64,000 nucleotides of DNA, taken from a virus. The stretch covers positions 62,001 to 126,000 of the IMG/VR virus record IMGVR_UViG_3300034072_001021; one strand, written 5' to 3'. The position numbers and the translations under genes are program-made. This document shows, piece after piece, positions 45,927 to 63,500 of the stretch. Within the stretch, counting starts at the first letter, position 1, and the number at the start of each line of letters is the position of its first letter. The notes under the pieces are model-generated. The model searched no databases. It saw only the letters and a program-made list of their open reading frames with translations, and had not been told where the DNA came from.

Positions 45927-46640
45927 TTACGCCACGCGCAGGTTGTTCGGGTGCAGACCCTCGACCAACTTCTGCATCACCTTGGCAGCGGCTTCAGACT
46001 TGGTGATCTTGCCGTTCTTGTCGATATCCAGGCCTTTGTTCTGTACGTACGCTTTCGACTTGGTGTTCATCTTGTCGAAGAGCACGTAGTCGGAAGGCTT
46101 ACCAACAGCAGCAGGCCAGAGTATCCTCATATAGACGTCGGACAGATCCTTCAGCTTGCCTTTGTACGGCTTGAAGAAATTGTAGACGTACTGAAGCTGT
46201 TGTACGTTGGTCATCTTCAGCAGCTGAGCGATAGTGGTACCGGCGTCCTTGGCAGCAGCAGCGCCGAACTGAATGATGCCGTAGTACGGAGCGCCAGCGC
46301 CGTTCTGGATGGTCGGAGAGAACGTACCACCAGTCTCGAACGCCATGCATGCCAGCAGTTCATCGGTGCCTTGGAACGTCATGCCGAGATCTTTGGCAAT
46401 GCGCTTGGTCTCGGCGATGAACTCATCAGAGACCCTGGCGGACCAGGCATGGGCTTTGCAGTACTTGAACAGCAGTTCACTGAAGCCAGCCGGAGGAGTT
46501 ACCGAGTTGGTACCTGCCATACGACGAGCATTGAGGAAAGCACCATGGCTAAGTTGACCCCAGGCACCATCGATGGCACCTGCATAGATACCAAGTGCTT
46601 TCATGTCACGTTGCAGATCTTTCAGCAGAGCGGTAGACAT
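45927..46640 (-). CDS. endolysin: peptidoglycan-binding plus lytic transglycosylase-like, with EF-hand loop
   Basis: 237 aa, AAGGAG before the ATG. Residues 5-40 look like a peptidoglycan-binding repeat (LQRDMKALGIYAGAIDGAWG). The catalytic domain follows with Glu102 in LACMAFETGGTFSP and then YYGIIQFGAAAA, the E ... YG-x-x-Q-F pattern of SLT/lysozyme-fold transglycosylases such as phiKZ gp144, which has the same domain order. The C-terminus carries DIDKNGKITKSE (205-216), a complete EF-hand loop (acidic or Asn at 1, 3, 5; Glu at 12), so calcium may stabilise it. It degrades the cell wall during lysis or entry. No holin is adjacent. Confidence 0.82.
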   Translation of the reverse strand: MSTALLKDLQRDMKALGIYAGAIDGAWGQLSHGAFLNARRMAGTNSVTPPAGFSELLFKYCKAHAWSARVSDEFIAETKRIAKDLGMTFQGTDELLACMAFETGGTFSPTIQNGAGAPYYGIIQFGAAAAKDAGTTIAQLLKMTNVQQLQYVYNFFKPYKGKLKDLSDVYMRILWPAAVGKPSDYVLFDKMNTKSKAYVQNKGLDIDKNGKITKSEAAAKVMQKLVEGLHPNNLRVA

Positions 46641-46641
46641 C

Positions 46642-47280
46642 TCACATCTCCTTGCTTTCGAGGTATTCTTTCAGCTTGTCGTAGCAGTCACGCTCACGAG
46701 TGAAAGGATAGTTGTCGATGGATTCGTTGACATGTTCTTCTTCAGAACCCGTCATCTTCCAGTCCAGACGAATGCCTTCACCCACAACAGCCAGCGGTGT
46801 GCTAACAGTTGTCTCGTAACGAGTGATGTGTACTGCGTTACGGTACGAGAACGGAGTCAACGGCAGTTCACGCCAGATGACCGCACTGGCGACTTGCTCA
46901 GCAGCTTCTTGGGTGTAGCTGTTGAGTTTCATCGGGTCGGCCAGCACTTTTGTCGACAGGAAGTCGTTGATGATGGCGTCTTCCAGATAGAGCATCTTCG
47001 GTACATTTGAAGACTTCATCCGGAAGTACATCTTCGTAGCATTCGGACGACCACGCGGAGCGTAGATCTTGGCCTGGCCGCCTTCATGTGGCGGCTTGTC
47101 GAATTCAGGCCACCATTCGACGGTATACCCTACGATGGTGTAGTGAAGGTCGCTCAGGTACGTGAAACACGCAGCGTCTTTGATGCGGCAGTTAACACGC
47201 AGTTTCACACCAGTGTCATCTGTCAGACGCATTACACGGAAGTGACCACGATCTGGGCCAGTATAAAGTTCATCGGGCAT
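46642..47280 (-). CDS. hypothetical protein in the modification island (212 aa)
   Basis: Not recognised. It contains GHFRVMRLTDDTGVKLRVNC, YTIVGYTVEWWPEFDKPPHE, MKSSNVPKMLYLEDAIINDF and a C-terminal acidic EYLESKEM. The fold looks mixed alpha-beta with many aromatic residues. Its stop is one base from the endolysin start, and it begins 8 bases after the first oxygenase gene, so it is translated with both. It could belong with the endolysin (tail or lysis) or with the modification enzymes. Confidence 0.45.
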   Translation of the reverse strand: MPDELYTGPDRGHFRVMRLTDDTGVKLRVNCRIKDAACFTYLSDLHYTIVGYTVEWWPEFDKPPHEGGQAKIYAPRGRPNATKMYFRMKSSNVPKMLYLEDAIINDFLSTKVLADPMKLNSYTQEAAEQVASAVIWRELPLTPFSYRNAVHITRYETTVSTPLAVVGEGIRLDWKMTGSEEEHVNESIDNYPFTRERDCYDKLKEYLESKEM

Positions 47281-47288
47281 GGACGCAC

Positions 47289-47846
47289 CTAAAGGAGTTT
47301 AGTGACGTAGTACTCATGCAACAGAGACAAACGAATGTCTTCGGTCACATGACTGACACTGTGGTTGATGTAACTCGGGAAAATGTAGATGTCGCCTTTC
47401 TTCGGCGAGATCCGCAGATTAGCGAAGTGATGATTACGCATCGGCTTGGGATAACCACGAGCAGCATTACACCGAGGGTCGAACATGTTCAATGCATTCT
47501 CTGAATCCGACGGATAACAGATAGCGGAGATCACAGACCCAGGATGCAGGTGTGGGAATAGCCCTTCACCCGGAGGAATCCACTTGCCGTTTGTCTCGAC
47601 ATAGAATTCGTCCATTTCGTAATTGAAGCTGTGCTTCGAAAACTCCATGACAGCCGGGGTGATAATCTTGTCACGCATTTCAATGATGACAGGATAGTGT
47701 TCAGCCAAGACTTTTACCTGACTGTCATCTTCACCGCCCGTCATTGAATAGAGCGTGAACACCTCATTCGCAAACAAATCCATATCAAACTGATCGGCTA
47801 CGTTGAAGTGTGCGATCTCAGTGATCCATGGCTGCAAGTATTTCAT
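47289..47846 (-). CDS. 2-oxoglutarate/Fe(II)-dependent oxygenase-like protein 1
   Basis: 185 aa from the ATG at 47846, which follows GGGAGG; the frame extends to 47963 without a site. The pattern of the TIGR02466-type 2OG oxygenases is visible: LFPHLHPGSVISAICYPSD (residues 97-115, H-x-H-P in place of H-x-D), then GDIYIFPSYINHSVSHVTED (151-170, distal His162) and IRLSLL with Arg172 for 2-oxoglutarate. Such enzymes hydroxylate amino acid side chains or small molecules. It sits among radical SAM genes, so a peptide or protein substrate is likely. Confidence 0.65.
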   Translation of the reverse strand: MKYLQPWITEIAHFNVADQFDMDLFANEVFTLYSMTGGEDDSQVKVLAEHYPVIIEMRDKIITPAVMEFSKHSFNYEMDEFYVETNGKWIPPGEGLFPHLHPGSVISAICYPSDSENALNMFDPRCNAARGYPKPMRNHHFANLRISPKKGDIYIFPSYINHSVSHVTEDIRLSLLHEYYVTKLL

Positions 47847-47847
47847 C

Positions 47848-48279
47848 TTAACCTCCCATGACAGAGCTAAGACCTTCCTCCGTGCACTCGAGTAGACAGT
47901 ACTTGACTGTCTGAGGTGCCCAGCCAGACTCCAACCAGTTTGGCATCGTCTTAAGACGCTCAATGATCTGGTCGTAAGTGGTGGGGTCTTTATCGTAAGT
48001 GACGAAGTAATGGTCGTGACCTAGGAACAGGTCTTCATCACGCAGGGTTTCGTAAATATCAATGCCATAGATCTCTTTAAGCTTGAACGCGTAAATGATC
48101 GCTACAGCATACGACTTGGCCGGATAGATCAATGGGAACGTTGCTTCCTTGAAATAGTGCAAGGCGTTCTCTACCAGCTCTTCTTCTTCGATAATCTCCA
48201 TGTTCTGGAAATCATCGGGATGATTCACTACCAGCTCTTCGTAGAGAAGCTGGTATTCCTTATACGGTTTGGAATTCAT
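47848..48279 (-). CDS. hypothetical protein between oxygenases (143 aa)
   Basis: Not recognised; helical, acidic and aromatic (YQLLYEELVVNHPDDFQNME; YAVAIIYAFKLKEIYGIDIY; MPNWLESGWAPQTVKYCLLE). The start overlaps the second oxygenase gene by 20 bases and the stop is 2 bases from the first oxygenase start, so the three are translated together. It may be a partner or substrate-recognition subunit (inference). One Cys near the C-terminus (YCLLEC has two) but no metal motif. Confidence 0.45.
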   Translation of the reverse strand: MNSKPYKEYQLLYEELVVNHPDDFQNMEIIEEEELVENALHYFKEATFPLIYPAKSYAVAIIYAFKLKEIYGIDIYETLRDEDLFLGHDHYFVTYDKDPTTYDQIIERLKTMPNWLESGWAPQTVKYCLLECTEEGLSSVMGG

Positions 48280-48703
48280 AATTGCTCACAAATGTGACCC
48301 GTAATTCAGGTTCGGGAGACGGTCTGACGTAATGAATCCAGCTGGCAGGGAATATGATCATTTTACCTTCTTCAGGGATAATCACGTTCTCACTACCGTC
48401 TGGCATGTTCATTACCAACTCACCCAATGAGTCAGTCAGGAATACCACTGAGGTGAATTCGTGAGGCAGGTGATCATGCGGCTTCACACCGACATCACCA
48501 ATGTGCACATGGTTAGCGCACAACCACAGGTCTTCACGTCCAGTGACCAACTGAGCCACAGGAAGAATGTGATCAATCGCCCATTGATTGAGTTTGCTCG
48601 AAGCAATGACGCCCAGATTGGGTTCAGCCAATAACTCAGCCAAAAGCCAATCTGGGACATCTACGCTAGAACATCCCATTTGTTTCGCATTCTCACCAGA
48701 CAT
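48260..48703 (-). CDS. 2-oxoglutarate/Fe(II)-dependent oxygenase-like protein 2
   Basis: 147 aa from the ATG at 48703 (AGGGG upstream); longer readings lie inside the next radical SAM gene. Double-stranded beta-helix signature: VGVKPHDHLPHEFTSVVFLT (72-91, H76 and H78), then EGKMIIFPASWIHYVRPSPE (112-131, distal His124) and ELRVTFVSNYEF with Arg135 for 2-oxoglutarate. This matches prolyl-hydroxylase-like enzymes. It overlaps the 3' end of radical SAM gene A by 43 bases, showing tight coupling with that enzyme. Confidence 0.65.
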   Translation of the reverse strand: MSGENAKQMGCSSVDVPDWLLAELLAEPNLGVIASSKLNQWAIDHILPVAQLVTGREDLWLCANHVHIGDVGVKPHDHLPHEFTSVVFLTDSLGELVMNMPDGSENVIIPEEGKMIIFPASWIHYVRPSPEPELRVTFVSNYEFQTV

Positions 48704-49686
48704 TCGTCTACCCCTAAGTGCGACATGACCGAGTGTATATCGCCGCGTGCACACCGATTGACGTGCATGCATTTACTACACAGGTCGCTAGTGCTCCACT
48801 TGATCAACTCAGTCAGATAAATTGATTCGTAGAACTCTTCGATAGACTCTGGTGTCCACGGTTGTTCAAGAGCAAACGCTTGATCGAAGATAGGGAACTT
48901 TTCAATCAGCGTAGGTGTATAGAACAACTCACCTTGCCGATAGGTCAGCTCTAAGCTATCTGTGGGAGGCTTGATCAGATAACGGTTGTACGGCGTATCG
49001 CGACACTCTTGAATGACATCGCAAAACTTACCAAACTCGTTCAAGAATAGTTGCCGATTGATCAGGTCATCAAACCCTCGGCGAACATGAGGGAAGACAT
49101 ACTCAACAAGCCTTCTCACACCAAAGTTCAATTCATGAAGATCTTGGTTGGCCTTCGGAGTAAAGTCACGTACAGAGTCACCAGTCATATTCACCGTCAA
49201 GTAAAGCAATTCGAACTTTACATCGGGTAGATGACTGATTACAAAGTCCACTCGACGTTTTACCAGATCTTGGTGTTTCTGGTTGTATGTGCTTTTGAGT
49301 GGAAACGGAGTTGCCAGTGTGAACGACTTACCTGCCATCAGTACATTCACTTTAGCACAGAGTTCTTCTAAACCATCATCGGACAATAACGCCAGCGGTA
49401 GCACGATACTTTCGTAACGTTCTGCTAGATCCTTGACCAACGGATGATCGAGAATATCAATCCCTGCCTTAGACGCAATCACGTCCACTGGCCCCACTGT
49501 GAACTCACGCAGCCGATAACCCCCTTGAGCCATCTGGTCAACCAATGTAATCAAACGCTCACGGTCATTATCGAAAGGACCGGGATCAAAGTCCCGGTCA
49601 ACCATGCAACCGACACACTGGTACTTACAACCCTGCAATATCTCAAGCGTCAGGTTAAACGCCTGGTTTGGAATTATTGCTGACAT
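48661..49686 (-). CDS. radical SAM enzyme A with C-terminal cysteine cluster
   Basis: 341 aa. The CxxxCxxC cluster is C20-KYQ-C24-VG-C27, which binds the 4Fe-4S that cleaves S-adenosylmethionine. Near residue 305 CSKCMHVNRCARG forms an auxiliary-cluster (SPASM-like) motif. Closest relative in the window is gene B (both begin with LTLEILQGC or ITLDIFRGC and GCM-x-DR), so the pair arose by duplication. Such enzymes make C-C, C-S or epimerised bonds in peptides. Overlaps gene B (32 bases) and the oxygenase behind it (43 bases). Confidence 0.82.
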   Translation of the reverse strand: MSAIIPNQAFNLTLEILQGCKYQCVGCMVDRDFDPGPFDNDRERLITLVDQMAQGGYRLREFTVGPVDVIASKAGIDILDHPLVKDLAERYESIVLPLALLSDDGLEELCAKVNVLMAGKSFTLATPFPLKSTYNQKHQDLVKRRVDFVISHLPDVKFELLYLTVNMTGDSVRDFTPKANQDLHELNFGVRRLVEYVFPHVRRGFDDLINRQLFLNEFGKFCDVIQECRDTPYNRYLIKPPTDSLELTYRQGELFYTPTLIEKFPIFDQAFALEQPWTPESIEEFYESIYLTELIKWSTSDLCSKCMHVNRCARGDIHSVMSHLGVDECLVRMRNKWDVLA

Positions 49687-50707
49687 GACTAAGCCCCACT
49701 AGACAGTCACGGATCTTCATGCGCTCCATGATGTTGATGATCCCCTTCTCACTGCAGCTACTCATGTAGACGCACGTCATGCAGGGAGTGTCAGCCAAGT
49801 ACTCCATAGCTTTGTTCATGGCCTTCTGACGGGTATCGAGAAGATTCTCCATTGTCCAGGGCTTGGGGATGGTGAACTCGTCTTCAATAAACGGACAGTC
49901 GTCTTTGAGGAAGGGCACCCAGTACAATTTACCGCCGGTGTACAGCAAGTTCACCATAGTGCCTGTATGGTAGCACAGATCGGGATTACGGCGACGCTCA
50001 TCTTCACCAGACAACCCAGAATAGAACTGAGTGATGCGGTGTGACATGCGCTTGATATTCTCGCCAACAATCAGATCCTTGTTCGGTAAACGACCGTACG
50101 GGATATTCAAGATGTCATCTTTGTCCACAGGGAACTCGACATCAAATCCGTTCATCATCATTTCGTCAAAGTCTTCACCCACAGTCTCGTGAGTGCAGTT
50201 CACCACAAACCCAGCTTCGTTCAGATAAGCATCTTTAAGATGCTCTTTTACGAAGTTCAGTTTGGAGACGATCATGTCAGAGAACTTATTCGACTTGAAA
50301 AAGTGCGGAGCAGCAGGCATCAGGAAACGGACTGCTTTGCCAGGGATCGCGCGATCGATCTCTTCACACATCACCGCGTACTTGTCCATGTCTTTCTCAA
50401 GGAACGCAGCGTTGAAGGTCACCTGATGGAACTCTTGCGCCATCTCACGGAACACTGGGTGCTCCATGACTTCATTGACGTTATCGGCAGACATGTAGTC
50501 AGTAGGGCCAATACCGAGATCGAATGCAACGTAACCGTTGTCAACCATCTCATTGATCAATGCACTCAATTCAGGGATGTCATTAACATCCCCGCCCAGC
50601 GTACGATCGATCATGCAGCCAGAACAGCTGTGTTGACATCCACGGAAGATGTCAAGGGTGATTTCAAGACGTTGCCGGTGTTGAACCGACCCGTATGCCA
50701 TTTTCAT
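49655..50707 (-). CDS. radical SAM enzyme B with C-terminal cysteine cluster
   Basis: 350 aa. C24-QHS-C28-SG-C31 is the SAM-cluster motif and CMTCVYMSSCSEKG (about 312-325) the auxiliary one; C-x-x-C-x-5-C is exactly as in enzyme A. The region between includes DLGIGPTDYM (residues 62-71), corresponding to the FTVGPVDVIA segment of A. The ATG at 50707 has GGGG upstream, and a second ATG two codons later is possible. It overlaps gene C by 44 bases. Substrate unknown; probably acts with A. Confidence 0.82.
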   Translation of the reverse strand: MKMAYGSVQHRQRLEITLDIFRGCQHSCSGCMIDRTLGGDVNDIPELSALINEMVDNGYVAFDLGIGPTDYMSADNVNEVMEHPVFREMAQEFHQVTFNAAFLEKDMDKYAVMCEEIDRAIPGKAVRFLMPAAPHFFKSNKFSDMIVSKLNFVKEHLKDAYLNEAGFVVNCTHETVGEDFDEMMMNGFDVEFPVDKDDILNIPYGRLPNKDLIVGENIKRMSHRITQFYSGLSGEDERRRNPDLCYHTGTMVNLLYTGGKLYWVPFLKDDCPFIEDEFTIPKPWTMENLLDTRQKAMNKAMEYLADTPCMTCVYMSSCSEKGIINIMERMKIRDCLVGLSHVSNNSKPGV

Positions 50708-51626
50708 GTGAACCCCATTTATCGATTAGTCCGCGGAACCCATTGCAGGAGTTCTCCAAGGATTTGACATCACGTAAGTGCTCAGAGAGACAGTGACCGT
50801 TATACGGACAAGTCGAGCAGATAGGATTGCTATTGACTCGAGACTTCTCCAACTCACACCATTGCCGATATGCATCAAGGCTATCGAGCGTCAAGAAAAA
50901 CTCATTGTCGTTCTCATCGAACTCCAGTACAGCATAGTCGCCAGTCGGAGTGATGTAGACATGGTCATCACTGTACGCGTTACGAGTCTTCTCAAACGCT
51001 TCTTTGACCTGCGTCTCGTTTTCGAAGTAGAAGGTTCGTTCAGGATGTTCGATAACTGCCCAGACGAACTCTTCAAACTCCTTGTACGTCACATTTTGCT
51101 GGTTTGCCTGATTCGAGCTGTAAGGCTTGATCTCAGCGCTTTTCAGGTTACCCAGGAGGTTCATCGTCTGAACGTACAAGTCGGGCGTGACGGTGTCCAG
51201 AAAGGCCCTAGAAGCCAATGTCAGCACATTGAACGGCTGAGTCATCAGTAACATGTTCTGCAACACGTTCTCGTTACGCTCACGTGCACCGAAATCGTAA
51301 GACACTGAGAACTCGTAACACTGATCATGGACAATGTCAGGCATGAACGACAAGTTGGTCTGTATCACGATGTCATCGATACCACGTGCGTAGAGGATAT
51401 CGAGGATAGTGTACAGATACTCTTCCTTGAGTAGTAGAACTTCGCCACCATAGAGGTCAACGTGCCCGATGGTATAATGTTCCATGATCTCGTCAATCAT
51501 AGCCGCTACACGATCAGGACTGATGCACGTAACATCAGACAATTGCGTTGGTGTTAGGTAGCAGAAATCACACCGGAAGTTGCAGTAGTACCATGGATTC
51601 AGTGACACATTTAGATGCGTTTTCAT
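50664..51626 (-). CDS. radical SAM/SPASM enzyme C
   Basis: 320 aa. The 4Fe-4S motif is C15-NFR-C19-DF-C22, followed by HVDLYGGEVLLL (the GGE motif that contacts the SAM amino group, residues 56-67). The C-terminus has CSTCPYNGHCLSEH and a later SCNGF, a SPASM-type layout (about 268-295). It overlaps both neighbours: the ATG shares ATGA with the stop of the 43-aa gene, and its end covers the start of B. Family knowledge: peptide-modifying radical SAM enzymes have this domain order. Confidence 0.85.
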   Translation of the reverse strand: MKTHLNVSLNPWYYCNFRCDFCYLTPTQLSDVTCISPDRVAAMIDEIMEHYTIGHVDLYGGEVLLLKEEYLYTILDILYARGIDDIVIQTNLSFMPDIVHDQCYEFSVSYDFGARERNENVLQNMLLMTQPFNVLTLASRAFLDTVTPDLYVQTMNLLGNLKSAEIKPYSSNQANQQNVTYKEFEEFVWAVIEHPERTFYFENETQVKEAFEKTRNAYSDDHVYITPTGDYAVLEFDENDNEFFLTLDSLDAYRQWCELEKSRVNSNPICSTCPYNGHCLSEHLRDVKSLENSCNGFRGLIDKWGSHENGIRVGSTPATS

Positions 51627-51754
51627 TTAGCTGCTCGTATGATCATGGTAATGGTCGACAGCTTAAACAAGTCCTCAACTAACCAGATGAACAGTGGTTC
51701 TTTTTCGACATACAGGTTCTTGAGATGATAATCGATGAATTCTTCTGTTCTCAT
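51623..51754 (-). CDS. tiny protein between radical SAM genes (43 aa)
   Basis: Found by direct reading. ATG at 51754 two bases after the stop of gene D, and its TGA overlaps the ATG of gene C (ATGA). Sequence: MRTEEFIDYHLKNLYVEKEP then LFIWLVEDLFKLSTITMIIR and AAK. The tight coupling supports it; no strong ribosome binding site is seen, so it may depend on re-initiation. It may be a small binding partner (RRE-like helper or leader), or a substrate; there is no Cys, Ser-rich or repeat core, so a peptide substrate role is less likely. Confidence 0.55.
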   Translation of the reverse strand: MRTEEFIDYHLKNLYVEKEPLFIWLVEDLFKLSTITMIIRAAK

Positions 51755-51756
51755 GA

Positions 51757-52845
51757 TTAGCCCTTAGCAATGAGCTGTACGGATTCGTCCACGTAAGGCG
51801 TAGGGGTCATGTATTCTGACATCCCGTTGATCTCGATGATACGTGGAGCCAATGTCTTCATCTTCTTGCAGTGGTGTTCTACCAGCCCCATCTTTTTGGT
51901 ATCTGCAATGGTCTTCTTGCAACCATTGCAGATGCTGAACATAGGACAGACATAGCACGACTGCTTCATGGTCTGAATATCGTCAGCCTCTTGAAGAGGT
52001 GTGAAGAATTCGCCAGCCATTTCTTTTTCGAAGTCGACGGGATATGCGCCATCATCACCAAACGCACCACACGTGAAGTACCCACCGCCTGGCTGCATGG
52101 CACGGATACCTTCATCGCAGTTTCTGGCTAGTGGGCAAGTGGTGTTGGCAGACTTCAATCGCCGAGCCATCTGTTTGGTATTGTACTCCCACTCCATTAG
52201 GCCTGCATCGTAGATCTGAATGTAGTGTTCGTACATATCCGCTTGAGTGAAGAAATTATCCTCACTGCCCATGACGATGCCACGATTATTGATCTTGGGA
52301 CCAGAAGCCATGACGTAATTGATCTTGGCTTCTACACCGAGTTCCTTAGCCAACCTGACAGTATCAAGAACGGAGTGACGATTGTCTTCATCAATGACCG
52401 CAATGAAGTCAAGGCTGTATCCGATCATCTCTGTAAACAGTGCGTTTACATTCCTGAAGTCTTCTTCAGTGAAGACCGTGCCATCGCCCTTGATGCGTTT
52501 GTCACCATATTGGAATGATGTGGTGATGCCTAGACGTGGATGACGGAACAATTCTGTCCACAGCTCAGGCTTCTTGTAGAACGGCCAAAGGTTACTGGTG
52601 AAACTGATACTTGCCTCAGAACCCAGACGATCCAGCATCGCAATCATCTCCCAGTAATACTCAGGAGGCATCATGAGCGGATCACCACCATTCACAATGA
52701 TGGTCCGTGTCTCTGGATAACGAGTGATGAAACGTTCGATGTCAGCAATGGTGACAATGTCATCACGGTTATCTGACAGGTGAGTACTTGAGCAGAACGT
52801 GCACCTGAAGTTACAGGCTACCGTCGGCTTAACGATAAGATCCAT
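51757..52845 (-). CDS. radical SAM/SPASM enzyme D (anSME-like architecture)
   Basis: 362 aa. C11-NFR-C15-TF-C18 at the N-terminus, IIVNGGDPLMMPP (GG-D/E-P) at 48-60, then CPLARNCDEGIRAMQPGGGY with a following FTCGAF. The C-terminal SPASM is CYVCPMFSICNGCKKTIADT followed by HHCKK. The C-x-x-C-x-5-C-x-x-C-x(n)-C series is typical of anSME and peptide maturases carrying two auxiliary clusters. The clearest match to the SPASM family in the window. It starts 4 bases after the SH3-like gene. Confidence 0.87.
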   Translation of the reverse strand: MDLIVKPTVACNFRCTFCSSTHLSDNRDDIVTIADIERFITRYPETRTIIVNGGDPLMMPPEYYWEMIAMLDRLGSEASISFTSNLWPFYKKPELWTELFRHPRLGITTSFQYGDKRIKGDGTVFTEEDFRNVNALFTEMIGYSLDFIAVIDEDNRHSVLDTVRLAKELGVEAKINYVMASGPKINNRGIVMGSEDNFFTQADMYEHYIQIYDAGLMEWEYNTKQMARRLKSANTTCPLARNCDEGIRAMQPGGGYFTCGAFGDDGAYPVDFEKEMAGEFFTPLQEADDIQTMKQSCYVCPMFSICNGCKKTIADTKKMGLVEHHCKKMKTLAPRIIEINGMSEYMTPTPYVDESVQLIAKG

Positions 52846-52849
52846 TGCG

Positions 52850-53086
52850 TCACCGATTGTGCGGAAATGGTTTTTGTTTCATCAGTTCTGTCGCTTTGGC
52901 TGAGAATGGTTCTGAACCATCTTCCCTTGCAGACAACACATAAGCGAATTCTTTACCTGGACGATGTTCTAGCACGTAGAGTTTATCGCCGTGACGAGCA
53001 TGTAGAAACGCAGGATGATCACCGCATGCATCGGTTTGAATAACACATCCGGCGTACGCAACATCACCAACCTTGAAAAGAGCCAT
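52850..53086 (-). CDS. small SH3-like hypothetical protein (78 aa)
   Basis: Starts at the ATG at 53086 with GGAG upstream; the frame extends eight codons further into the promoter region. Strand-rich: FKVGDVAYAGCVIQTDACGD, then HARHGDKLYVLEHRPGKEFA and SAREDGSEPFSAKATELM. The V-G-D start and the KLYVLE and FAYVLS strands suggest a small beta barrel. First gene of the minus-strand part of the island (53.1 to 45.9 kb), probably made together with enzymes D, C, B and A. It might be a recognition or binding module; unproven. Confidence 0.5.
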   Translation of the reverse strand: MALFKVGDVAYAGCVIQTDACGDHPAFLHARHGDKLYVLEHRPGKEFAYVLSAREDGSEPFSAKATELMKQKPFPHNR

Positions 53087-53119
53087 GGTCAACTCCATTA
53101 AAATTATCATACCGATTAG

Positions 53120-53167
53120 CCTGTTATGTTTTAAATACTCGGTATTTTCTATAGACCATAACAGGAG
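53120..53167. promoter_or_regulatory. divergent control region with nested palindromes
   Basis: Outer inverted repeat CCTGTTATG (53120-53128) / CATAACAGG (53157-53165) and inner AAATAC-TCG-GTATTT (53133-53147), in an AT-rich gap between divergent genes. The right outer arm overlaps the AGGAG ribosome binding site of the ATP-grasp gene. It could be an operator for both directions or a translation-blocking hairpin. Confidence 0.55.
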
Positions 53168-53169
53168 CC

Positions 53170-54186
53170 ATGGAAATGGACAAAGTACACATTGTTGTTA
53201 GCCGTCTGATGAACAACTTCGGTATCCTTCCTCAGGGTATTGTGATCGGTGGAAAACGCGTGTTCTTCCATAACGACCCGCGCATGTCGGCTGATGGAGA
53301 CACCGTCCACTTTAACTTCGATTACATGATCACCGACGGTACCATCAAGATCGACAGTGACGTAGATGCAGAGAGTATTGTTCCTGCGCACATGTTGTCG
53401 ATCACCAAGCGGTATAACAAGTTCGAGCAAATGACCCGCCTTCGCAACTTTGCTACCGAGCAAGCAAAGAAGGGCAAGTTCGACATCGACAACTTCGTTG
53501 TGCCGGGTGTCTGGTACAACAAACAACAATCCGGTCTGTCTAACCTGGTCATTCCAGATGAAGAGACGGTCATTGTCAAACCGGCCGATGGTGCTCGTGG
53601 TATCGGTCAGTTCATGGTGAAACTGGATAAGATCCCATTCGTGGTATTTGTCGAGACACTCGATCGGTACCGCTTAGGGAAAATAACTGAAGAGCAGTTT
53701 TGGTTAGGACTCAATAAGTTCTCAGGTTGCTATGTCTATTCCACGGCTGGCGAACATTACGAGAACGAAGGTCTTCTTTCCCTGAAGAACCAAGGCTACG
53801 TAGTTCAGGGTTTTGTTAAAGACGTCTGCTCTGAATACCGACTCTTGACCGATCTTGATGGTAAGATCGCTTACTGTCAAATGCGAGGTATCCGCGATAA
53901 AGATCAGTCTGAATTCCCTCAGGCTACTGGGTCGGACACCAACAGCATCGAGGGCAGTGATATCGTCCCTATCGATGAAGTCGTTAATAAACGCACTCTC
54001 AGAGATCTGAATGCGGTTGCATCAAAAGTCGTTGGGCCTCTCAGTTCTATCGATCTCTTCTTAACCGAAGATGGTCGTTGGGGGATCTTCGAGTACTGCA
54101 ACCAGTTCGGCATCAAGGGCGTTCCAATGGAGACGACGTTCAAACTCCATTACGACTTTATTGAACGACTCATTGGAGATAAGTGA
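53170..54186 (+). CDS. ATP-grasp ligase
   Basis: 338 aa; CAGGAG just upstream (a second ATG two codons later is equally placed). Residues about 90-130 form a cap, then VIVKPADGARGIGQFMVKLD is the ATP-grasp glycine-rich loop, VVQGFVKDVCSEYRLLTDLD the central strand with the E-x-R pair, and IDLFLTEDGRWGIFEYCNQF the D ... E-x-C-N-Q metal-binding end (family E-x-N). It forms amide or ester bonds using ATP. It is the only plus-strand enzyme in the island, divergent from the SH3-like gene. Role similar to RimK or microviridin-type ligases is possible; substrate unknown. Confidence 0.8.
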   Translation: MEMDKVHIVVSRLMNNFGILPQGIVIGGKRVFFHNDPRMSADGDTVHFNFDYMITDGTIKIDSDVDAESIVPAHMLSITKRYNKFEQMTRLRNFATEQAKKGKFDIDNFVVPGVWYNKQQSGLSNLVIPDEETVIVKPADGARGIGQFMVKLDKIPFVVFVETLDRYRLGKITEEQFWLGLNKFSGCYVYSTAGEHYENEGLLSLKNQGYVVQGFVKDVCSEYRLLTDLDGKIAYCQMRGIRDKDQSEFPQATGSDTNSIEGSDIVPIDEVVNKRTLRDLNAVASKVVGPLSSIDLFLTEDGRWGIFEYCNQFGIKGVPMETTFKLHYDFIERLIGDK

Positions 54187-54187
54187 C

Positions 54188-54376
54188 ATGTCTCAAGATT
54201 CAGTTGAAATGAAGTACGATCCAGCTGATGGCGGCATGGCCCCGTCCCCGAACATTGCCAGTCATTGGCGTACGTTCAATGGCGACACCGCATGGATGTA
54301 CAATCCGTGGACAGGTGAGCTGCGGGATGCACGCGATGTGGGTTCCGATCCACAAGGCATACTGATCACTCCGTAA
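54188..54376 (+). CDS. small protein following the ATP-grasp gene (62 aa)
   Basis: TTGGAG lies 8 bases before the ATG at 54188, one base after the ligase stop. Sequence runs MSQDSVEMKYDPADGGMAPS, then NIASHWRTFNGDTAWMYNPW, ending in an Asp/Gly-rich TGELRDARDVGSDPQGILIT. Not recognised. It could be a ligase substrate or an unrelated small phage protein. No Cys, and no repeated core motif. Ends at the convergent hairpin. Confidence 0.5.
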   Translation: MSQDSVEMKYDPADGGMAPSPNIASHWRTFNGDTAWMYNPWTGELRDARDVGSDPQGILITP

Positions 54377-54383
54377 TAGCGGA

Positions 54384-54412
54384 CATAGGGGAGGGCTGAG
54401 CCCTCCCCTATG
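54384..54412. terminator. bidirectional hairpin terminator
   Basis: Perfect 13-bp stem CATAGGGGAGGGC / GCCCTCCCCTATG with a TGA loop between the ATP-grasp unit and radical SAM gene E. Confidence 0.75.
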
Positions 54413-54415
54413 CCG

Positions 54416-55411
54416 TTACTTCAGGATAACGTCGTACATCGCCTTAATGCGGCAACTATCATCCAGACCATCCTCGATAAATGAATGATGGAGGAAGCAG
54501 CGCATACCACAGCGGGAGTAATACTCACACGCAAAGCAGTTGTACTTCTCAACGAAACGAAGCTCGGCCTCGTCCTTTGCCATCAGTCCCTCTTTCTCAT
54601 CGAGAATAGAGTTCTTCCCGGCTTCACTCCAGCAGGTCGTCACCACATTGTCTTTGTTGACAATCTTGGTGGAACGACAGGTGGTCTCGTTGAACTTGTT
54701 TTCCTTCCAGTCCTTGATCGGATAGGAATTCGGGTACCGTTCATTGAGATGGATGTAGAGCTTACTGATCAGATCCTCGTCGGGCTGAAGATGCTCGTAC
54801 ATGTGACTCGGGATGTAATGGTCAAAGTAGACATTGAAGTTCTCACAGAGCCAGTCCACCTCGGCACCCTCTTTACCTTCTAGGAATGACTCGATGTTCT
54901 GCTTAGTGATCACGACATTGACTGTCTTGACGTAATCCTTGACTTTCACCAGGTTCTCGAAGAACTTCTTACGGTCTTCTGGGTTGAAACGCCCCGCAGG
55001 ATCGTAGGAGGTTGCAACGATACAGTTACCGTGCTTACGAAGGCGCTCAACAAGCGCTATAAGTCGATTTACGTGATAGTAGACAAGGTTGGTACCCAAG
55101 ACCAAGATAGCGTCGTCATAGTACTCCAGAACCCGTTTACCGGCTTCGTAGAATGCGTCGAACAACGAATCAGGATATTGGTCAAGGAACAACTCACCGC
55201 CAGTGAAATTGACGACGTACTGATCAGTTGGACTGGTATTGGCCAGCAACTGATCTACCTTGCCATGAATGTCAGTCATTCCGACAATAGAATCGTGATC
55301 TTGGTGGCAGAATGAACATCTCAGATTACAGTACTCAAAGAAAATAAGATGAGCCTCCTTTCGGAGGCCCTTCTTTTCCCTGAGTATGTCTACGACAGGG
55401 ATCAACTCCAT
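54416..55411 (-). CDS. radical SAM/SPASM enzyme E
   Basis: 331 aa. The SAM-cluster motif is C28-NLR-C32-SF-C35, VNFTGGELFLDQ the GGE motif (about 66-77). CRSTKIVNKDNVVTTCWSEA and CFACEYYSRCGMRCFLHHSF with a final DDSCRIK make the C-terminal SPASM. The N-terminal extension of 27 residues before the first Cys is longer than in A to D. The ATG at 55411 has AGGAG upstream. Its start overlaps the stop of the 351-aa gene by one base, so it is translated with the 55.4-59.3 kb group. Confidence 0.85.
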   Translation of the reverse strand: MELIPVVDILREKKGLRKEAHLIFFEYCNLRCSFCHQDHDSIVGMTDIHGKVDQLLANTSPTDQYVVNFTGGELFLDQYPDSLFDAFYEAGKRVLEYYDDAILVLGTNLVYYHVNRLIALVERLRKHGNCIVATSYDPAGRFNPEDRKKFFENLVKVKDYVKTVNVVITKQNIESFLEGKEGAEVDWLCENFNVYFDHYIPSHMYEHLQPDEDLISKLYIHLNERYPNSYPIKDWKENKFNETTCRSTKIVNKDNVVTTCWSEAGKNSILDEKEGLMAKDEAELRFVEKYNCFACEYYSRCGMRCFLHHSFIEDGLDDSCRIKAMYDVILK

Positions 55412-56466
55412 TACCAGTTGGCTCCTACGAGGGCCTCATTGAGCACAGAGAGATCCGCATTCAGAATGAACCGAATCAGGTTCTCATCGTACTTACCAGT
55501 ATCACGGAAAGCCATAGCAATGCGGTGTTCACCATTGAAGATGGCGTTGACACGCTCCATGCAGACTGCTGGGTCACCCGGATTCTCGACTGCCGACAGC
55601 AGCGAGAGGATCATGGACGCACGCTTGGCAGACGACTCGTCTTCCAGTACGTTCATCAGCGTGATGGCTTCTTTCAGCATGTTCTTCAGCCATGCATCAT
55701 TCGGCTTGAAGTCGTACAGGCCAGGACGCAGCAGTTGCTGGCTAGCCAGATGAGGCATGTTCACGCAGGCCTCGAACACCGTCGGTGCAGTCAGCAGACT
55801 ATCCAGATCACAACCACCTACTTCCCAGAACTTCTCACGAGTCAGGTGACGACCCCAAACTTCCAGCGCATCATGGGCGTTGCTGAGCGCAATGCGACGC
55901 AGGATGTTCTTGATGGTTTTCGGGATCTTGCCAACACGCTGCTCGGTACGCAGACGGATCAGACGCCATTCCAGCGACAAGGCATCCGGATCATCATTGA
56001 CCAGATCGACCATGGCTTCTTGGAAAGCTTCAGTGCGCTTGTAGACTTCTTCCACTTTAGCCGCAGTGAACGTGACAGAGCCGAGTACGTCTACACGAGG
56101 TTCGCCACCGGCACAGATGACAGTGTTGAACGTGGCTTTCTTGCACACCATGATCCAGCGGAAAGTGTCCAGGTCGATCGACGGCATGAGGGCCTTGATC
56201 AACGACGCGTACAGGCGCAGATAGGTGTCGCCATCGCAATAGATCATGGTCTTGTTTTCAGAAGCATGAGCTTCCTTCATTGCAGCCAGGAACTTCTCGA
56301 CGTCTACCGTATCCAGAGAAGTAGCCCAATACAGCTGCTTGCCGACTTCTTCGTGGGCAGCGGGGAAGTACTCATGGCCATGCTCGGGGGAGATGGTGAT
56401 GACATTGTGAGATCGGTCGATCCGACGCTCCGAGTCGACATACGTCGAATTAAACAGATGGTACAT
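55411..56466 (-). CDS. hypothetical protein in the modification island (351 aa)
   Basis: Not recognised. It contains VGKQLYWATSLDTVDVEKFL, TMIYCDGDTYLRLYASLIKA, RWIMVCKKATFNTVICAGGE and a long helical C-terminal half (ITLMNVLEDESSAKRASMIL). The start overlaps the 3' end of the 251-aa gene by 17 bases and the end touches radical SAM gene E, so the three form one translational unit. It has codon bias closer to virion genes than to accessory genes. Perhaps a substrate carrier or scaffold for enzymes E and F (inference). Confidence 0.45.
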   Translation of the reverse strand: MYHLFNSTYVDSERRIDRSHNVITISPEHGHEYFPAAHEEVGKQLYWATSLDTVDVEKFLAAMKEAHASENKTMIYCDGDTYLRLYASLIKALMPSIDLDTFRWIMVCKKATFNTVICAGGEPRVDVLGSVTFTAAKVEEVYKRTEAFQEAMVDLVNDDPDALSLEWRLIRLRTEQRVGKIPKTIKNILRRIALSNAHDALEVWGRHLTREKFWEVGGCDLDSLLTAPTVFEACVNMPHLASQQLLRPGLYDFKPNDAWLKNMLKEAITLMNVLEDESSAKRASMILSLLSAVENPGDPAVCMERVNAIFNGEHRIAMAFRDTGKYDENLIRFILNADLSVLNEALVGANW

Positions 56467-57205
56467 GTTCGATCCCTTTCAAGAGTTCTTGACATTCCAG
56501 CATGGAGCTGCGGGCAGCAGCTTCAAGCTTAGCCACACCGTCCGGCTCTGCAATGGCAAGCAGACCAACGAACAGCGGATTGCGCTTGCTGGCGAAGTGA
56601 TGGAAGAGGTTCTTACCGGCAAAACAATACTTGTCGAACAGCATGGGGTTCCACGACAGTTCTTGTTGCTCTACCGAATTGAAGAAATTGGGGAACAGTT
56701 CATGATCGATCAGTTGGACGAAGTTGATACCGCGCAGGTCTTCACTTTCGTCTTTCTCAAACTGCTCGACCATCGATTTGGTATTCGGTGCAGTGTGCAG
56801 AGCAAACACCATGAGCGACAGAATGCGTTTGAGCCACTGTTCGATGATCTCTTCGTTTTCAGCGATGAAGTTGGCCGGATCGAAGTCCAGGAAATTCATC
56901 TCGCCCCGACAAAGCAGTAGGAGGTTGATCGCAAGATCTTCCATCTCACTGAATTTGACCAACAGCGCACTGTTGAGATACGACTTCAGCAACTCGAGTT
57001 TAGATTCTTGAGTGCTGAACGTAACCCGACAGTTGAGGTTCAAGTTGGTAAGGTACGTGAGGAACGTATCACCTTTGAACGCACTCTTGTCGTAGTCTAC
57101 GACGAATTGCACGTTCTCCTTAAACTTACGTTTCAGGTCATTGATCGGGATTGGGGCAGCGGTTTCGATGATTACCAACTCGCCCTTGTCTTGATTCTCG
57201 CTCAT
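56450..57205 (-). CDS. hypothetical protein in the modification island (251 aa)
   Basis: Not recognised; helical, with IPINDLKRKFKENVQFVVDY, LAINLLLLCRGEMNFLDFDP, ENEEIIEQWLKRILSLMVFA and KNLFHHFASKRNPLFVGLLA. There is no enzymatic motif. It begins 12 bases after the CHxS-tailed gene and overlaps the 351-aa gene, so it is in the same operon as radical SAM enzymes E and F. Its role may be substrate binding; unsupported by motif. Confidence 0.45.
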   Translation of the reverse strand: MSENQDKGELVIIETAAPIPINDLKRKFKENVQFVVDYDKSAFKGDTFLTYLTNLNLNCRVTFSTQESKLELLKSYLNSALLVKFSEMEDLAINLLLLCRGEMNFLDFDPANFIAENEEIIEQWLKRILSLMVFALHTAPNTKSMVEQFEKDESEDLRGINFVQLIDHELFPNFFNSVEQQELSWNPMLFDKYCFAGKNLFHHFASKRNPLFVGLLAIAEPDGVAKLEAAARSSMLECQELLKGIEHVPSV

Positions 57206-57217
57206 GGTCGCTCCTAA

Positions 57218-57757
57218 TTACCGGCGGCCACGGTTACTGTGGCAGCTGCTGTGACAACTGGTGTGGCAGATGGTGTTGGTCAGGGTCAGGGTGGTGAAGC
57301 GGGTATTGAGCGCATATGCGACCCAGAGATCTTCACATGCCTGATTGAAGTCTGCCAAATTCATCTCGTTACCGTTTGCAAACGGCATGGCCACATTATT
57401 GGCAAATGCTGGAACAAACGCAACTACGTTAGCAACTGCTGTTTGATCACTGACTACCGTGGCACCAACTGAGTAGTGCGACATGTAGATCACGATACGA
57501 GTATTACGTACACCACCAAACAGATTGGTCACGTATTTGAGTGCGTTGATGACATTGGTGGCGTTGGTTTTATCCTGATCGCCCCAGCTGTCATTAGTCC
57601 ACGCAGCACCCGGTCCAGCTGTGGTTCCAGCAAACCATTCTGGAAGTGAGTACGCCGGATAGTTGTTGGTGCCCCATGCAATACCGGAAATGGCCCGGTT
57701 TCGAATCAGTGAGTTAGCGTTTGCAGTCATTCGACTGCGGCGCAGTTCTTCAGTCAT
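57218..57757 (-). CDS. CHxS-tailed protein, candidate substrate of the radical SAM island
   Basis: 179 aa. The body (1-163) has a short basic start (TEELRRSRMTANANSLIRNR), an Asn/Ala/Trp-rich part (GIAWGTNNYPAYSLPEWFAG, residues 25-44) and strands with FGGVRNTRIVIYMSHYSVGA. The last 16 residues read CHTS-CHSS-CHSN-RGRR, three tetrapeptide repeats beginning CH, then a basic end. No zinc-finger or heme spacing fits. The gene begins one base after the stop of radical SAM gene F. Cys, His and Ser repeats recall the His-Xaa-Ser and other radical SAM-modified peptides, so I infer that the tail is a modification site. It could also be a virion protein whose tail binds metal. Confidence 0.55.
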   Translation of the reverse strand: MTEELRRSRMTANANSLIRNRAISGIAWGTNNYPAYSLPEWFAGTTAGPGAAWTNDSWGDQDKTNATNVINALKYVTNLFGGVRNTRIVIYMSHYSVGATVVSDQTAVANVVAFVPAFANNVAMPFANGNEMNLADFNQACEDLWVAYALNTRFTTLTLTNTICHTSCHSSCHSNRGRR

Positions 57758-57758
57758 G

Positions 57759-58793
57759 TCACACCTTCAATATCAGGTTTGAATGTTGGTTTCTACCGGA
57801 AAGGTAACGGAGTGTGTTCTTCAAGCCACCGCATCGACCGTTCTGCCAAGGGAGTCTGTGACAATCACCTCCACATAGATCGAACACGTCGCAGCCTAAA
57901 CAACCCGGCTCCCATGTAAGCTCTTTTACAATTTCATTGACTCGACCGTCTGACGTCAAGAACGTCTCTATCGAATCGGTGATTTTGGCGTGGTGTTTTT
58001 GAGTGGCTGCATTAGGGCAGCCGGACAACGTACCATTGGAATTGATTGTGACCAGATTCTGTTCACAGTTCCGACAGTTAGTGTCTACCTTCACCACGTT
58101 CTTCTGGATCTTCTCTTCAAGAATATCCAAGGTCTTTATCCTGACCCGAGGAGAGCGTTCTTTATAACGTTTGAATAGCGCCAGATACCAATTGTCTTGC
58201 TCTTCGTTATTAGGGAAGATGTCAAGGTTCTCAGTAGCGCTGCCATCCAGCGTCAGTCGTTCGAGTGAACACTCTTGAATAGGGAGTGACTCCAGATGGT
58301 CCAAGAACCAATCTGGGGTCTTCTGTATCAGATCTTTACTGACCGATACCTTAACAGCAATACCAATGCCTTCATCGGACAACACTTGAAGGTTGTGCTT
58401 CCAGAGGTCGTATTGTTTCTGGTTGGACCACCTGATCCAATTGTCCCAGCTTGTCCCTATCCAGCTGCCGAAGTAATCCTTGATGAATGCGATCTGCTCA
58501 TCACTCATCTTGAACGTGAGATTACTGTTGGCGCACATGGTTACATTTTCCATGTGTTTGAATCTGTCTGCAAACCGCTTGAGCTTTTCAACAGGAACGA
58601 GGAAAGGCTCACCACCATGAAACTCGAAATGGTACTGTGTATCGTCAGGATATTGCTGGATGAACTGTTCTACCCAGTCGGCGGTTGCTTCTGGATCAAA
58701 CTGTGTTTTGTCGCCATTCTTGCCGTTGGTGAAACAGTGCTGGCAATTCAGGTTACAGGTTCCAGTCGTCTTGACGTAGATGACTTTATTCAT
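57759..58793 (-). CDS. radical SAM/SPASM enzyme F
   Basis: 344 aa. C13-NLN-C17-QH-C20, then YHFEFHGGEPFLVPVEKL with a textbook HGGEPFL motif (57-65). NCRNCEQNLVTINSNGTLSG with the following C-P-N-A, and a dense C-terminal SPASM: CLGCDVFDLCGGDCHRLPWQ and a later RCGGLK. This is the most complete peptide-maturase layout of the six. It is directly followed by the CHxS-tailed gene (1 base) and preceded by the JmjC-like gene (2 bases), which makes it the best candidate for modifying the CHxS tail. Confidence 0.88.
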   Translation of the reverse strand: MNKVIYVKTTGTCNLNCQHCFTNGKNGDKTQFDPEATADWVEQFIQQYPDDTQYHFEFHGGEPFLVPVEKLKRFADRFKHMENVTMCANSNLTFKMSDEQIAFIKDYFGSWIGTSWDNWIRWSNQKQYDLWKHNLQVLSDEGIGIAVKVSVSKDLIQKTPDWFLDHLESLPIQECSLERLTLDGSATENLDIFPNNEEQDNWYLALFKRYKERSPRVRIKTLDILEEKIQKNVVKVDTNCRNCEQNLVTINSNGTLSGCPNAATQKHHAKITDSIETFLTSDGRVNEIVKELTWEPGCLGCDVFDLCGGDCHRLPWQNGRCGGLKNTLRYLSGRNQHSNLILKV

Positions 58794-58795
58794 GG

Positions 58796-59314
58796 TTAGA
58801 GCTTCTGTTCGATAAACAACTCGAGACCAAAACTGAGCATCACGGATTGTTCATGGTTGATGGCCTGGTGTTTGACACCACGCGGAATGTAAAGCATCTG
58901 TCCTTCTTCGAGCATGAAGTTACCACACTCGGTCAGGAACTCTTTTCGACCTTCCACCATGTAGATCACGACATCATCGAGATCGATGTGCATGGGAAAG
59001 CTCAAGGAATCTTTGGGTGACAGAAAGAGATGAGCAGATACGTAACCATAATGTCCATAGTGCTTGGCTAGTGCCGCAGCTACCTTGAACATAGTTTCGT
59101 TGAACCGCTCATAACCCTCGATCTTGACTGGACAGCAATCGACTTCCATCGCCTCCAGAACATCGGTAGGACCGTTCGCTAAAACAGACCCACCGTGTTT
59201 GATATATTTGACCAGTTGCTGGAGATAAGGATAGGGGCTTGCAAGAAGATCATCAATGCGAAGATCTTCCTTCTTAAGTCCGATCAAACCAAACTCAGAA
59301 ATTCGATGGACCAT
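58796..59314 (-). CDS. JmjC/cupin-type Fe(II)-dependent hydroxylase-like protein
   Basis: 172 aa from the ATG at 59314 (AAAGGAGGGG upstream); longer readings lie in the fibre gene. The C-terminal cupin has SFPMHIDLDDVVIYMVEGRK with H109-x-D111, then EEGQMLYIPRGVKHQAINHE with distal His149. These are the metal ligands of ribosomal-oxygenase or JmjC hydroxylases, which hydroxylate protein side chains. The N-terminal 95 residues are helical and shorter than in full-size relatives. First gene after the tail fibre, in the same run as enzyme F. Confidence 0.68.
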   Translation of the reverse strand: MVHRISEFGLIGLKKEDLRIDDLLASPYPYLQQLVKYIKHGGSVLANGPTDVLEAMEVDCCPVKIEGYERFNETMFKVAAALAKHYGHYGYVSAHLFLSPKDSLSFPMHIDLDDVVIYMVEGRKEFLTECGNFMLEEGQMLYIPRGVKHQAINHEQSVMLSFGLELFIEQKL

Positions 59315-59331
59315 TACAAGCCCCTCCTTTA

Positions 59332-63359: not shown

Positions 63360-63500
63360 TTCTCTTTCTCCGTTGGGATCTCCATCGATCTGAAGACCGA
63401 TTAACGGGGATCTTGGTGTACGGCACTTTTCTAAAAACAGACTGTGTCTAATATGGAATATCAAACAACTGGCATACCATTATCGTGGGAGACGCGTTAA
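63360..63500. promoter_or_regulatory. divergent promoter region
   Basis: 141-base gap between divergent start codons, AT-rich near the middle (TTTTCTAAAAACAGACTGTG, TAATATGGAATATC). It must contain promoters for the fibre operon (minus) and the last gene (plus); exact elements not resolved. Confidence 0.4.

What the first reader, a model, noticed from the sequence alone, without database searches (positions are those of the whole stretch)
46642..59314. A phage island of six radical SAM enzymes, three oxygenases and an ATP-grasp ligase
Within 12.7 kb I count six CxxxCxxC radical SAM proteins (48661, 49655, 50664, 51757, 54416, 57759), most with SPASM-like C-terminal Cys clusters, three Fe(II)/2OG or JmjC-like proteins (47289, 48260, 58796) and an ATP-grasp ligase (53170), plus at least six unrecognised partner genes. 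These families together are known from RiPP and protein-maturation pathways, but I know of no described phage locus with this density. Genes overlap or abut, so they are expressed as units, inside the late/virion region between an endolysin and tail fibres. I infer a phage-encoded system that modifies a peptide or virion protein, perhaps to protect fibres, change receptor specificity or attack a competitor.
Basis: partly seen in the sequence, partly recalled or inferred. Interest (0 to 1): 0.95.

Follow-up and report, generated by a model that had tools for sequence, protein, structure and literature searches.

The report
Phage cassette modifying a fibre-linked protein
Many large tailed phages, and a few predatory bacteria, carry next to their attachment-fibre genes a set of up to six radical-SAM and three oxygenase enzymes together with one small protein ending in an almost unchanging cysteine-histidine tag, so these viruses very probably rework the chemistry of a protein of their own attachment machinery, which to my knowledge has not been described.

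Summary
Between radical SAM (rSAM) gene 57759 and partner gene 56450 lies a 179-aa gene (57218-57757, minus strand). It encodes a folded domain (pLDDT 90.7) with a flexible C-terminal tag, ICHTSCHSSCHSNRGRR-stop. In 80 viral loci collected with rSAM 57759 alone, 74 carry a protein ending exactly CHxxCHxxCHxxRxRR; three of the six others are cut by contig ends. Conversely, 109 of 115 viral loci found by the tag alone contain rSAM relatives; the other six are truncated. Gene order oxygenase > rSAM A > tag protein > 56450 > 55411 > rSAM B > C > D is conserved, directly downstream of tail-fibre-like genes. One homologue carries a fibre chaperone (Peptidase_S74) right after the tag. In phage Atu_ph07 the MS-defined virion gene cluster begins at the tag protein. 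The cassette is also chromosomal in a few Bdellovibrionota, beside S74 fibre genes. The 58796 oxygenase resembles the histidyl hydroxylase MINA53. Best reading: a multi-rSAM/oxygenase system maturing a Cys/His tag on an adsorption-fibre-associated protein. Chemistry and benefit are inferred. The ATP-grasp gene is optional and on the other strand; two of the six rSAMs are divergent.

The parts
58796..59368 (-). JmjC/cupin oxygenase (cassette gene 1; most homologues start about 20 aa further in)
   Evidence: Pfam JmjC_2 1e-12; H127/D129/H167 invariant in 16 homologues; profile hits MINA53 histidyl hydroxylase 2xdv 2.6e-7
57759..58793 (-). rSAM A, SPASM-type
   Evidence: Pfam Radical_SAM 9e-8, anSME-like TIGR03942 1.2e-15 (below cut-off), SPASM TIGR04085 5.6e-6 (just below cut-off); PDB profile hits 8vpo, CteB 5wgg, anSME 4k36-39; Cys pattern
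57218..57757 (-). tag protein: candidate substrate, 179 aa, folded domain plus C-terminal Cys/His tag; starts one base after rSAM A ends
57221..57268 (-). the tag itself: CHTSCHSSCHSNRGRR, last 16 residues
   Evidence: only match in window and in the 259-kb genome, expected 0.01 in the window; residues 164-179
56450..57205 (-). conserved partner P_56450 (PHROG 20767, unknown); pLDDT 93.5, no PDB fold match
   Evidence: 63/63 loci
55411..56466 (-). conserved partner P_55411, unknown
   Evidence: 53/63 loci
54416..55411 (-). rSAM B
   Evidence: 59/63 loci
53170..54186 (+). ATP-grasp-like gene, optional, opposite strand
   Evidence: motifs conserved in 5 homologues; 4/63 loci; no HMM or PDB support
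52850..53110 (-). 86-aa ORF, unknown
51757..52845 (-). rSAM C, SPASM-like
   Evidence: Pfam 1.7e-12; PHROG 1802 1e-51; full-length PDB profile hit to anSME 4k36 2e-5
50664..51626 (-). rSAM D
   Evidence: Pfam 8.8e-8; viperin-like profile hits; invariant Cys and GGE
49655..50707 (-). divergent rSAM E
48661..49686 (-). divergent rSAM F
48260..48697 (-). 2OG-Fe(II) oxygenase-like
   Evidence: phrog_81 3e-9; Pfam PF13759 2e-4
47848..48279 (-). conserved small partner P_47848
   Evidence: homologues beside rSAM D in many loci
47289..47846 (-). 2OG-Fe(II) oxygenase
   Evidence: Pfam PF13759 5e-12
46642..47280 (-). unknown protein shared with DT01 and L017; last cassette gene
59332..60906 (-). upstream tail/fibre structural protein (repeats NNPHxTTKAQVGLxxVxN)
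   Evidence: PHROG 2163 virion structural, 13857 tail
60966..63464 (-). second upstream fibre-like protein with the same repeat
   Evidence: sequence; equivalents upstream in related loci
45927..46640 (-). baseplate-hub/transglycosylase-like protein after the cassette
   Evidence: PHROG 196 baseplate hub 1.4e-37; equivalent annotated putative transglycosylase in DT01

Best explanation
The island is a protein-maturation cassette. The 179-aa tag protein is a component of the virion's adsorption apparatus (fibre or fibre-tip associated). Its folded domain presents a flexible C-terminal tail of tandem CHxS units ending RxRR. The rSAM/SPASM enzymes A, B, C and D, plus the divergent E and F, act on the Cys, His or Ser residues of the repeats, most plausibly forming cross-links or other C-H functionalisation. 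The JmjC (ROX-like) and 2OG oxygenases hydroxylate His, Arg or other positions of the tag. The product is a rigid, protease-resistant and possibly metal-binding basic cap that contacts or penetrates the target cell envelope. Shown here: the cassette, its conserved order, the near-absolute linkage to the tag, conservation of the tag at amino-acid but not DNA level, a predicted folded body with a flexible tail, the fibre-gene neighbourhood in phages and in Bdellovibrionota, and one homologue with an S74 fibre chaperone directly after the tag. Inferred: that the tag is the substrate (about 0.85), that the protein is in the virion adsorption apparatus (about 0.7), the exact chemistry (low confidence) and the role in adsorption or entry.
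For: Linkage in both directions: tag-only scan 109/115 viral loci with rSAM, the other six cut within 1.7 kb downstream; rSAM-A-only scan 74/80 with exact tag plus stop, three cut by contig ends, two with variant tags of 2 and 4 units, one with tag followed by S74. Control: 29 of 32 hits of a looser CH-repeat pattern are low-complexity sequence without rSAM. Tag positions not fixed by the search are also constrained (S at position 4 in 71/74, G before RR in 67/74), while codons vary freely: 63 distinct DNA versions, TGT/TGC about 1:1. The tag is flexible on a folded domain. Virion: the Atu_ph07 paper's MS-based virion cluster 'CDS 170-215' begins at the tag protein gp170 (numbering matched by portal gp198 and prohead core gp204). 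Fibres: directly downstream of fibre-like ORFs; L188 body-tag-Peptidase_S74 fusion, 1.5e-11; Bdellovibrionota copies near Peptidase_S74 genes. Chemistry: A and C resemble peptide- or protein-modifying anSME, CteB and YydG; oxygenase 58796 resembles MINA53, a His hydroxylase, with its metal triad conserved, and the tag has three invariant His.
Against: No modification has been measured. gp170 detection is inferred from the published cluster boundary; the supplementary list could not be read. No leader peptidase, exporter or recognisable RiPP recognition element was found (P_56450 has no fold match). E and F lack strong rSAM support. A Cys/His tail could instead bind metal without rSAM chemistry. 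The adhesin role rests on neighbourhood and a single S74 fusion; the tag protein's fold matches no known fibre.
Confidence: 0.62

Rival explanations
1. The tag protein is not the substrate but a metal/Fe-S-binding or carrier partner that serves the rSAM enzymes; the enzymes modify another target such as the adjacent tail fibres.
For: Cys/His repeats are typical metal ligands (general knowledge); fibre genes are immediately upstream.
Against: The tag sits on a flexible C-terminus with a strictly fixed end; bodies diverge to about 22-30% identity while tag residues do not; unit number varies from 2 to 5; the tag is joined to a fibre chaperone in L188; the Atu_ph07 virion cluster starts at it. 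A scaffold protein would not need to enter the virion.
Confidence: 0.18
2. The cassette makes a secreted RiPP natural product (bacteriocin or signal) cut from the tag, used against competitors.
For: rSAM/SPASM plus small precursor is the RiPP logic.
Against: No peptidase, transporter or immunity gene was recognised in the cassette; the 'precursor' is a 165-aa confidently folded domain; position among virion genes; only about 16 residues of core.
Confidence: 0.07
3. The enzymes are auxiliary metabolic genes acting on nucleotides, tRNA, sugars or lipids and are co-located with the tag gene only by history.
For: Phages carry QueE-like and other metabolic rSAMs; D resembles viperin by profile.
Against: Conserved order around the tag protein in unrelated phages and in bacterial chromosomes; near-absolute mutual presence; A and C are closest to protein- or peptide-modifying SPASM enzymes.
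Confidence: 0.05
4. The system modifies host proteins or surface during infection, for example to block superinfection, and the tag protein is an effector rather than a virion part.
For: Sporadic distribution; large phages carry many takeover genes (general knowledge).
Against: Fibre neighbourhood, S74 fusion, virion cluster, and use in predatory bacteria next to fibre genes.
Confidence: 0.08

Closest known systems
rSAM/SPASM RiPP maturation systems (sactipeptides, ranthipeptides, cyclophanes, His-Xaa-Ser HxsABC)
   Same: SPASM-type rSAM beside a small gene with a conserved repetitive Cys/His/Ser C-terminus; A and C resemble CteB, PapB, DynA and anSME models
   Different: All curated NCBIfam models far below cut-off (e.g. 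HxsB 30.7 vs 370 bits, PapB 53.6 vs 340); no leader peptidase or exporter; substrate is a folded, fibre-linked viral protein; up to nine rSAM genes in a locus; added JmjC/2OG oxygenases
Anaerobic sulfatase-maturating enzymes (anSME)
   Same: Best full-length model for A (TIGR03942 1e-15) and PDB profile match for C; act on Cys/Ser in CxPxR-type motifs (general knowledge), loosely like the last tag unit CHxSR
   Different: Below cut-off; no sulfatase; tag lacks the P/A position
MINA53/NO66/YcfD ribosomal oxygenases
   Same: JmjC_2 match and profile match to MINA53 with metal triad
   Different: Single small domain; no ribosomal-protein substrate known here
Bdellovibrio MAT fibres (PMC10769870) and phage S74 fibres
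   Same: S74 chaperone fibres near bacterial cassettes and fused to one tag protein
   Different: No rSAM cassette or tag is described there in the passages read; most bacterial S74 proteins here begin with pilin-type N_methyl motifs
Radical-SAM gene cassettes in pelagimyophage host-recognition clusters (PMC7029224)
   Same: Same genomic setting (tail-fibre region), rSAM genes
   Different: Reported as variable genes; in the passages read no substrate, tag or function was proposed
R2K ATP-grasp ligases of phages (PMC4431377, PMC7824862)
   Same: Gene 53170 has ATP-grasp-like motifs; predicted protein-modifying role
   Different: Membership unconfirmed; optional and on opposite strand

Membership tests
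Radical SAM superfamily | CxxxCxxC plus SAM-binding barrel recognised by HMM (A-D) | tested here: met
   B below the Pfam cut-off (2.6e-5) but with invariant CxxxCxxC and GGE in homologues
Radical SAM superfamily | Same for E and F | tested here: inconclusive
   E to A hhalign 1.1e-4; 6/33 members hit Radical_SAM; F to A weak; GPTD/GPVD replaces GGE
SPASM | Cx(9-15)Gx4Cx(n)Cx2Cx5Cx3Cx(n)C | tested here: met
   rSAM A: C243..G254-x4-C259..C298x2C301x5C307x3C311..C321
RiPP pathway | Conserved modifiable core on a co-encoded precursor | tested here: met
   tag in 74/80 loci sampled without reference to it
RiPP pathway | Leader removal by peptidase and export | tested here: not met
   no such family among the window cassette genes scanned
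RiPP pathway | Covalent modification of the core | not testable with these tools
   needs mass spectrometry
His-Xaa-Ser (Hxs) system | HxsB/HxsC above NCBIfam cut-offs | tested here: not met
   HxsB 30.7 of 370 bits (rSAM A); HxsC 22.7 of 267.9 bits (rSAM C)
JmjC/ROX oxygenase | DSBH/cupin fold with HxD/E...H triad | tested here: met
   JmjC_2 1e-12; H127/D129/H167 invariant; MINA53 2.6e-7
JmjC/ROX oxygenase | Hydroxylates His or Arg of a protein | not testable with these tools
   biochemistry needed
Virion fibre/adhesin | S74 chaperone or fibre domain on the tag protein | tested here: inconclusive
   one homologue (L188) has Peptidase_S74 directly after the tag; others lack it; fold matches no known fibre
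Virion protein | Detected in purified particles | tested here: inconclusive
   PMC6102473 virion cluster begins at gp170; supplementary table not readable
ATP-grasp (R2K) | HMM or structure match | tested here: inconclusive
   no HMM or PDB hit; KPxDGARGIGQF and FEYCNQFG motifs conserved in 5 homologues

The most novel reading that the evidence does not exclude
A new, widespread class of virus-encoded post-translational chemistry: diverse phages, and some predatory bacteria, tip or decorate their attachment fibres with an enzymatically built CHxS-repeat structure (cross-linked, hydroxylated, perhaps metal-loaded), made by a dedicated array of radical-SAM enzymes, as a general device for engaging or breaching bacterial envelopes.
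Probability: 0.45. Interest if true: 0.97.

Novelty: new variant of a known kind. Interest (0 to 1): 0.9.

Why it matters
Covalent rSAM maturation of a viral particle protein would, as far as I know, be a first. It would give unknown chemistry a short, defined substrate (16 residues, three Cys, three His, three invariant Arg), link phage adsorption to RiPP-type enzymology, and explain a large unannotated gene block in marine and soil phages. Its presence in Bdellovibrionota next to S74 fibre genes suggests a shared solution for attacking bacterial envelopes. It is directly testable on cultured phages (DT01, FLC6, FLC8, SURPRISE13, Atu_ph07, Phosso).

Tried and rejected
Rejected: ATP-grasp as a core part (4/63 loci, opposite strand). 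Rejected: membership in Hxs, PapB, anSME, DarE or DynA families (all far below NCBIfam cut-offs). P_56450 as a RiPP recognition element: AlphaFold model confident, but no PDB match better than E 0.09. Tag-protein fold: no PDB match; viral library returns only what look like homologues. tblastn of the tag alone found nothing, probably because of low-complexity filtering, so DNA patterns were used. A looser four-unit pattern gave mostly low-complexity noise. PDB profile searches with E/F and B gave no significant rSAM structure. The jumbo-phage survey PMC7824862 does not mention radical SAM. Literature searches for phage RiPP or rSAM virion modification found nothing matching, but only open-access papers are held.
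Full report
WHAT IS THERE. The window is bases 62001-126000 of a 259-kb virus record. The virus matches PHROGs for phage helicase, ribonucleotide reductase, major head and virion proteins; its nearest relative in the phage collection is Pseudomonas phage pPa_SNUABM_DT01, about 74% nucleotide identity over the matching part of the island. The minus-strand genes from 59368 down to 46642 overlap or abut, apart from a plus-strand insertion (53170-54186) and short gaps. Four rSAM proteins (57759 A, 54416 B, 51757 C, 50664 D) are supported by profiles and by invariant CxxxCxxC, GGE/GGD and C-terminal Cys. Two more (49655 E, 48661 F) are divergent members by profile comparison. Three oxygenases are present.

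THE MISSING PIECE. ORF 57218-57757 starts one base after rSAM A ends. It ends ...ICHTSCHSSCHSNRGRR-stop. The gene in the same place in DT01, Atu_ph07, Phosso, SURPRISE13 and FLC6 ends ICHTSCHTSCHSARGRR, FCHSSCHASCHNSRSRR, YCHTSCHASCHSSRSRR, VCHSSCHTSCHGSRGRR and VCHSSCHTSCHGSRGRR. The motif occurs once in the whole viral genome, against 0.01 expected by chance in the window.

LINKAGE. 115 encode the motif at the exact C-terminus of a real ORF, and 109 of these have rSAM relatives in the fetched stretch; the other six have at most 1.7 kb downstream. Because that scan fixes C, H and R, I also sampled with rSAM A alone: of 80 loci, 74 have an ORF ending in the exact tag. Of the six others, three are cut by contig ends, L182 has a two-unit tag, L186 a four-unit tag without RxRR, and L188 a four-unit tag followed by another domain. 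The 80 are the best-scoring relatives of rSAM A (40-73% identity), not a random draw. Tag DNA is not conserved: 63 distinct versions, with both Cys and both His codons at similar frequency. Selection is therefore on the peptide. A looser pattern used as control gave 32 hits, of which only the three inside rSAM cassettes are real tags.

ARCHITECTURE. In 63 full-length loci the usual order is oxygenase > A > (tag) > P_56450 > P_55411 > B > C > D, with P_56450 in 63, the oxygenase in 61, B in 59 and P_55411 in 53 (C and D are often beyond the fetched 11 kb). Some lineages carry two tandem tag proteins and four to five E/F-type rSAMs. AlphaFold (51-row alignment) gives a confident domain (pLDDT 90.7) with the last 15 residues flexible; there is no PDB fold match and only apparent homologues in the viral library.

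VIRION AND FIBRE LINK. The cassette lies immediately downstream of one or two large fibre-like ORFs in most loci. The published pelagimyophage host-recognition cluster contains rSAM cassettes beside tail fibres (PMC7029224). In Atu_ph07 the authors' MS-based virion cluster is CDS 170-215 (PMC6102473). Matching portal gp198 and prohead core gp204 to the record makes the tag protein gp170, the boundary gene. This strongly suggests that it was detected, but I could not read the table. L188 encodes body-tag-Peptidase_S74 in one chain (1.5e-11). S74 is a chaperone/protease domain of phage fibres and spikes that cleaves itself off after trimerisation (PMC10769870), which would leave the tag near the mature C-terminus; its relative L186 simply stops there. 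In L211 a Gly-rich, adhesin-like segment interrupts the tag-protein body.

BEYOND PHAGES. A genome-collection scan gave 19 hits, 16 genuine: nine from Bdellovibrionota assemblies, the rest mostly virus-like contigs in other bins. Five of the nine were read in wider context; in four the flanks look chromosomal (L152-L159), and in those four the loci carry Peptidase_S74 proteins nearby, three of them with pilin N_methyl starts. Only 8 of 291 sampled genomes of that phylum have it. The bacterial rSAM C sequences form one clade (SH-aLRT 95) among viral ones, so a single transfer is possible; direction is not resolved.

MECHANISM. A and C resemble peptide/protein-modifying SPASM enzymes, and the 58796 oxygenase resembles MINA53, a protein histidyl hydroxylase, with its metal triad intact. 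With three invariant His, three Cys and three Arg in the tag, the simplest reading is stepwise modification of the repeats. Which bonds are made is unknown. The role (binding, puncturing, stabilising) is inferred from the fibre context.

NOVELTY AND LIMITS. No Pfam or NCBIfam model covers the tag protein; PHROG 35144 (unknown function) matches only its C-terminus weakly. No paper found in the held library describes the system, but subscription papers and preprints are not held. Named isolates with the cassette are few: DT01, Atu_ph07, Phosso, FLC6, FLC8, SURPRISE13. Everything chemical awaits mass spectrometry.

Noticed in passing
L011, L035, L044, L064, L078, L097: Viral loci with two tandem ~130-aa tag proteins and several E/F-type rSAM paralogues, with no rSAM A in the fetched stretch of several of them; possibly one enzyme per unit or residue.
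   Followed up: partly
L250:1-7002: 504-kb viral contig with a five-unit tag ending ...NCHTNCHSSCHSSCHSSCHGSSGGW and rSAM relatives; unit number varies from 2 to 5 across loci.
   Followed up: partly
L152:15698-16324, L155:4153-4704, L156:10929-11525, L159:14546-15145: In Bdellovibrionota loci a ~200-aa protein without Pfam match sits next to each S74 fibre gene near the cassette.
   Followed up: no
L007:18406-19583 (SURPRISE13) and FLC6 equivalents: Two dihydrofolate-reductase-like genes lie inside the Burkholderia phage cassettes, perhaps a reductive step.
   Followed up: no
L211:6016-6942: Tag-protein body interrupted by a Gly-rich adhesin-like segment; the rest of the gene continues as a separate ORF with the tag (also L214, L218, L221).
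   Followed up: partly
L121:2228-10699: Tag gene directly follows an open frame of about 2,800 codons on the same strand, probably a giant fibre.
   Followed up: no
L141: Metagenome contig with a genuine tag but no rSAM relative in the 5.2 kb downstream; a prepilin-like gene and a peptidase-like ORF are nearby.
   Followed up: partly
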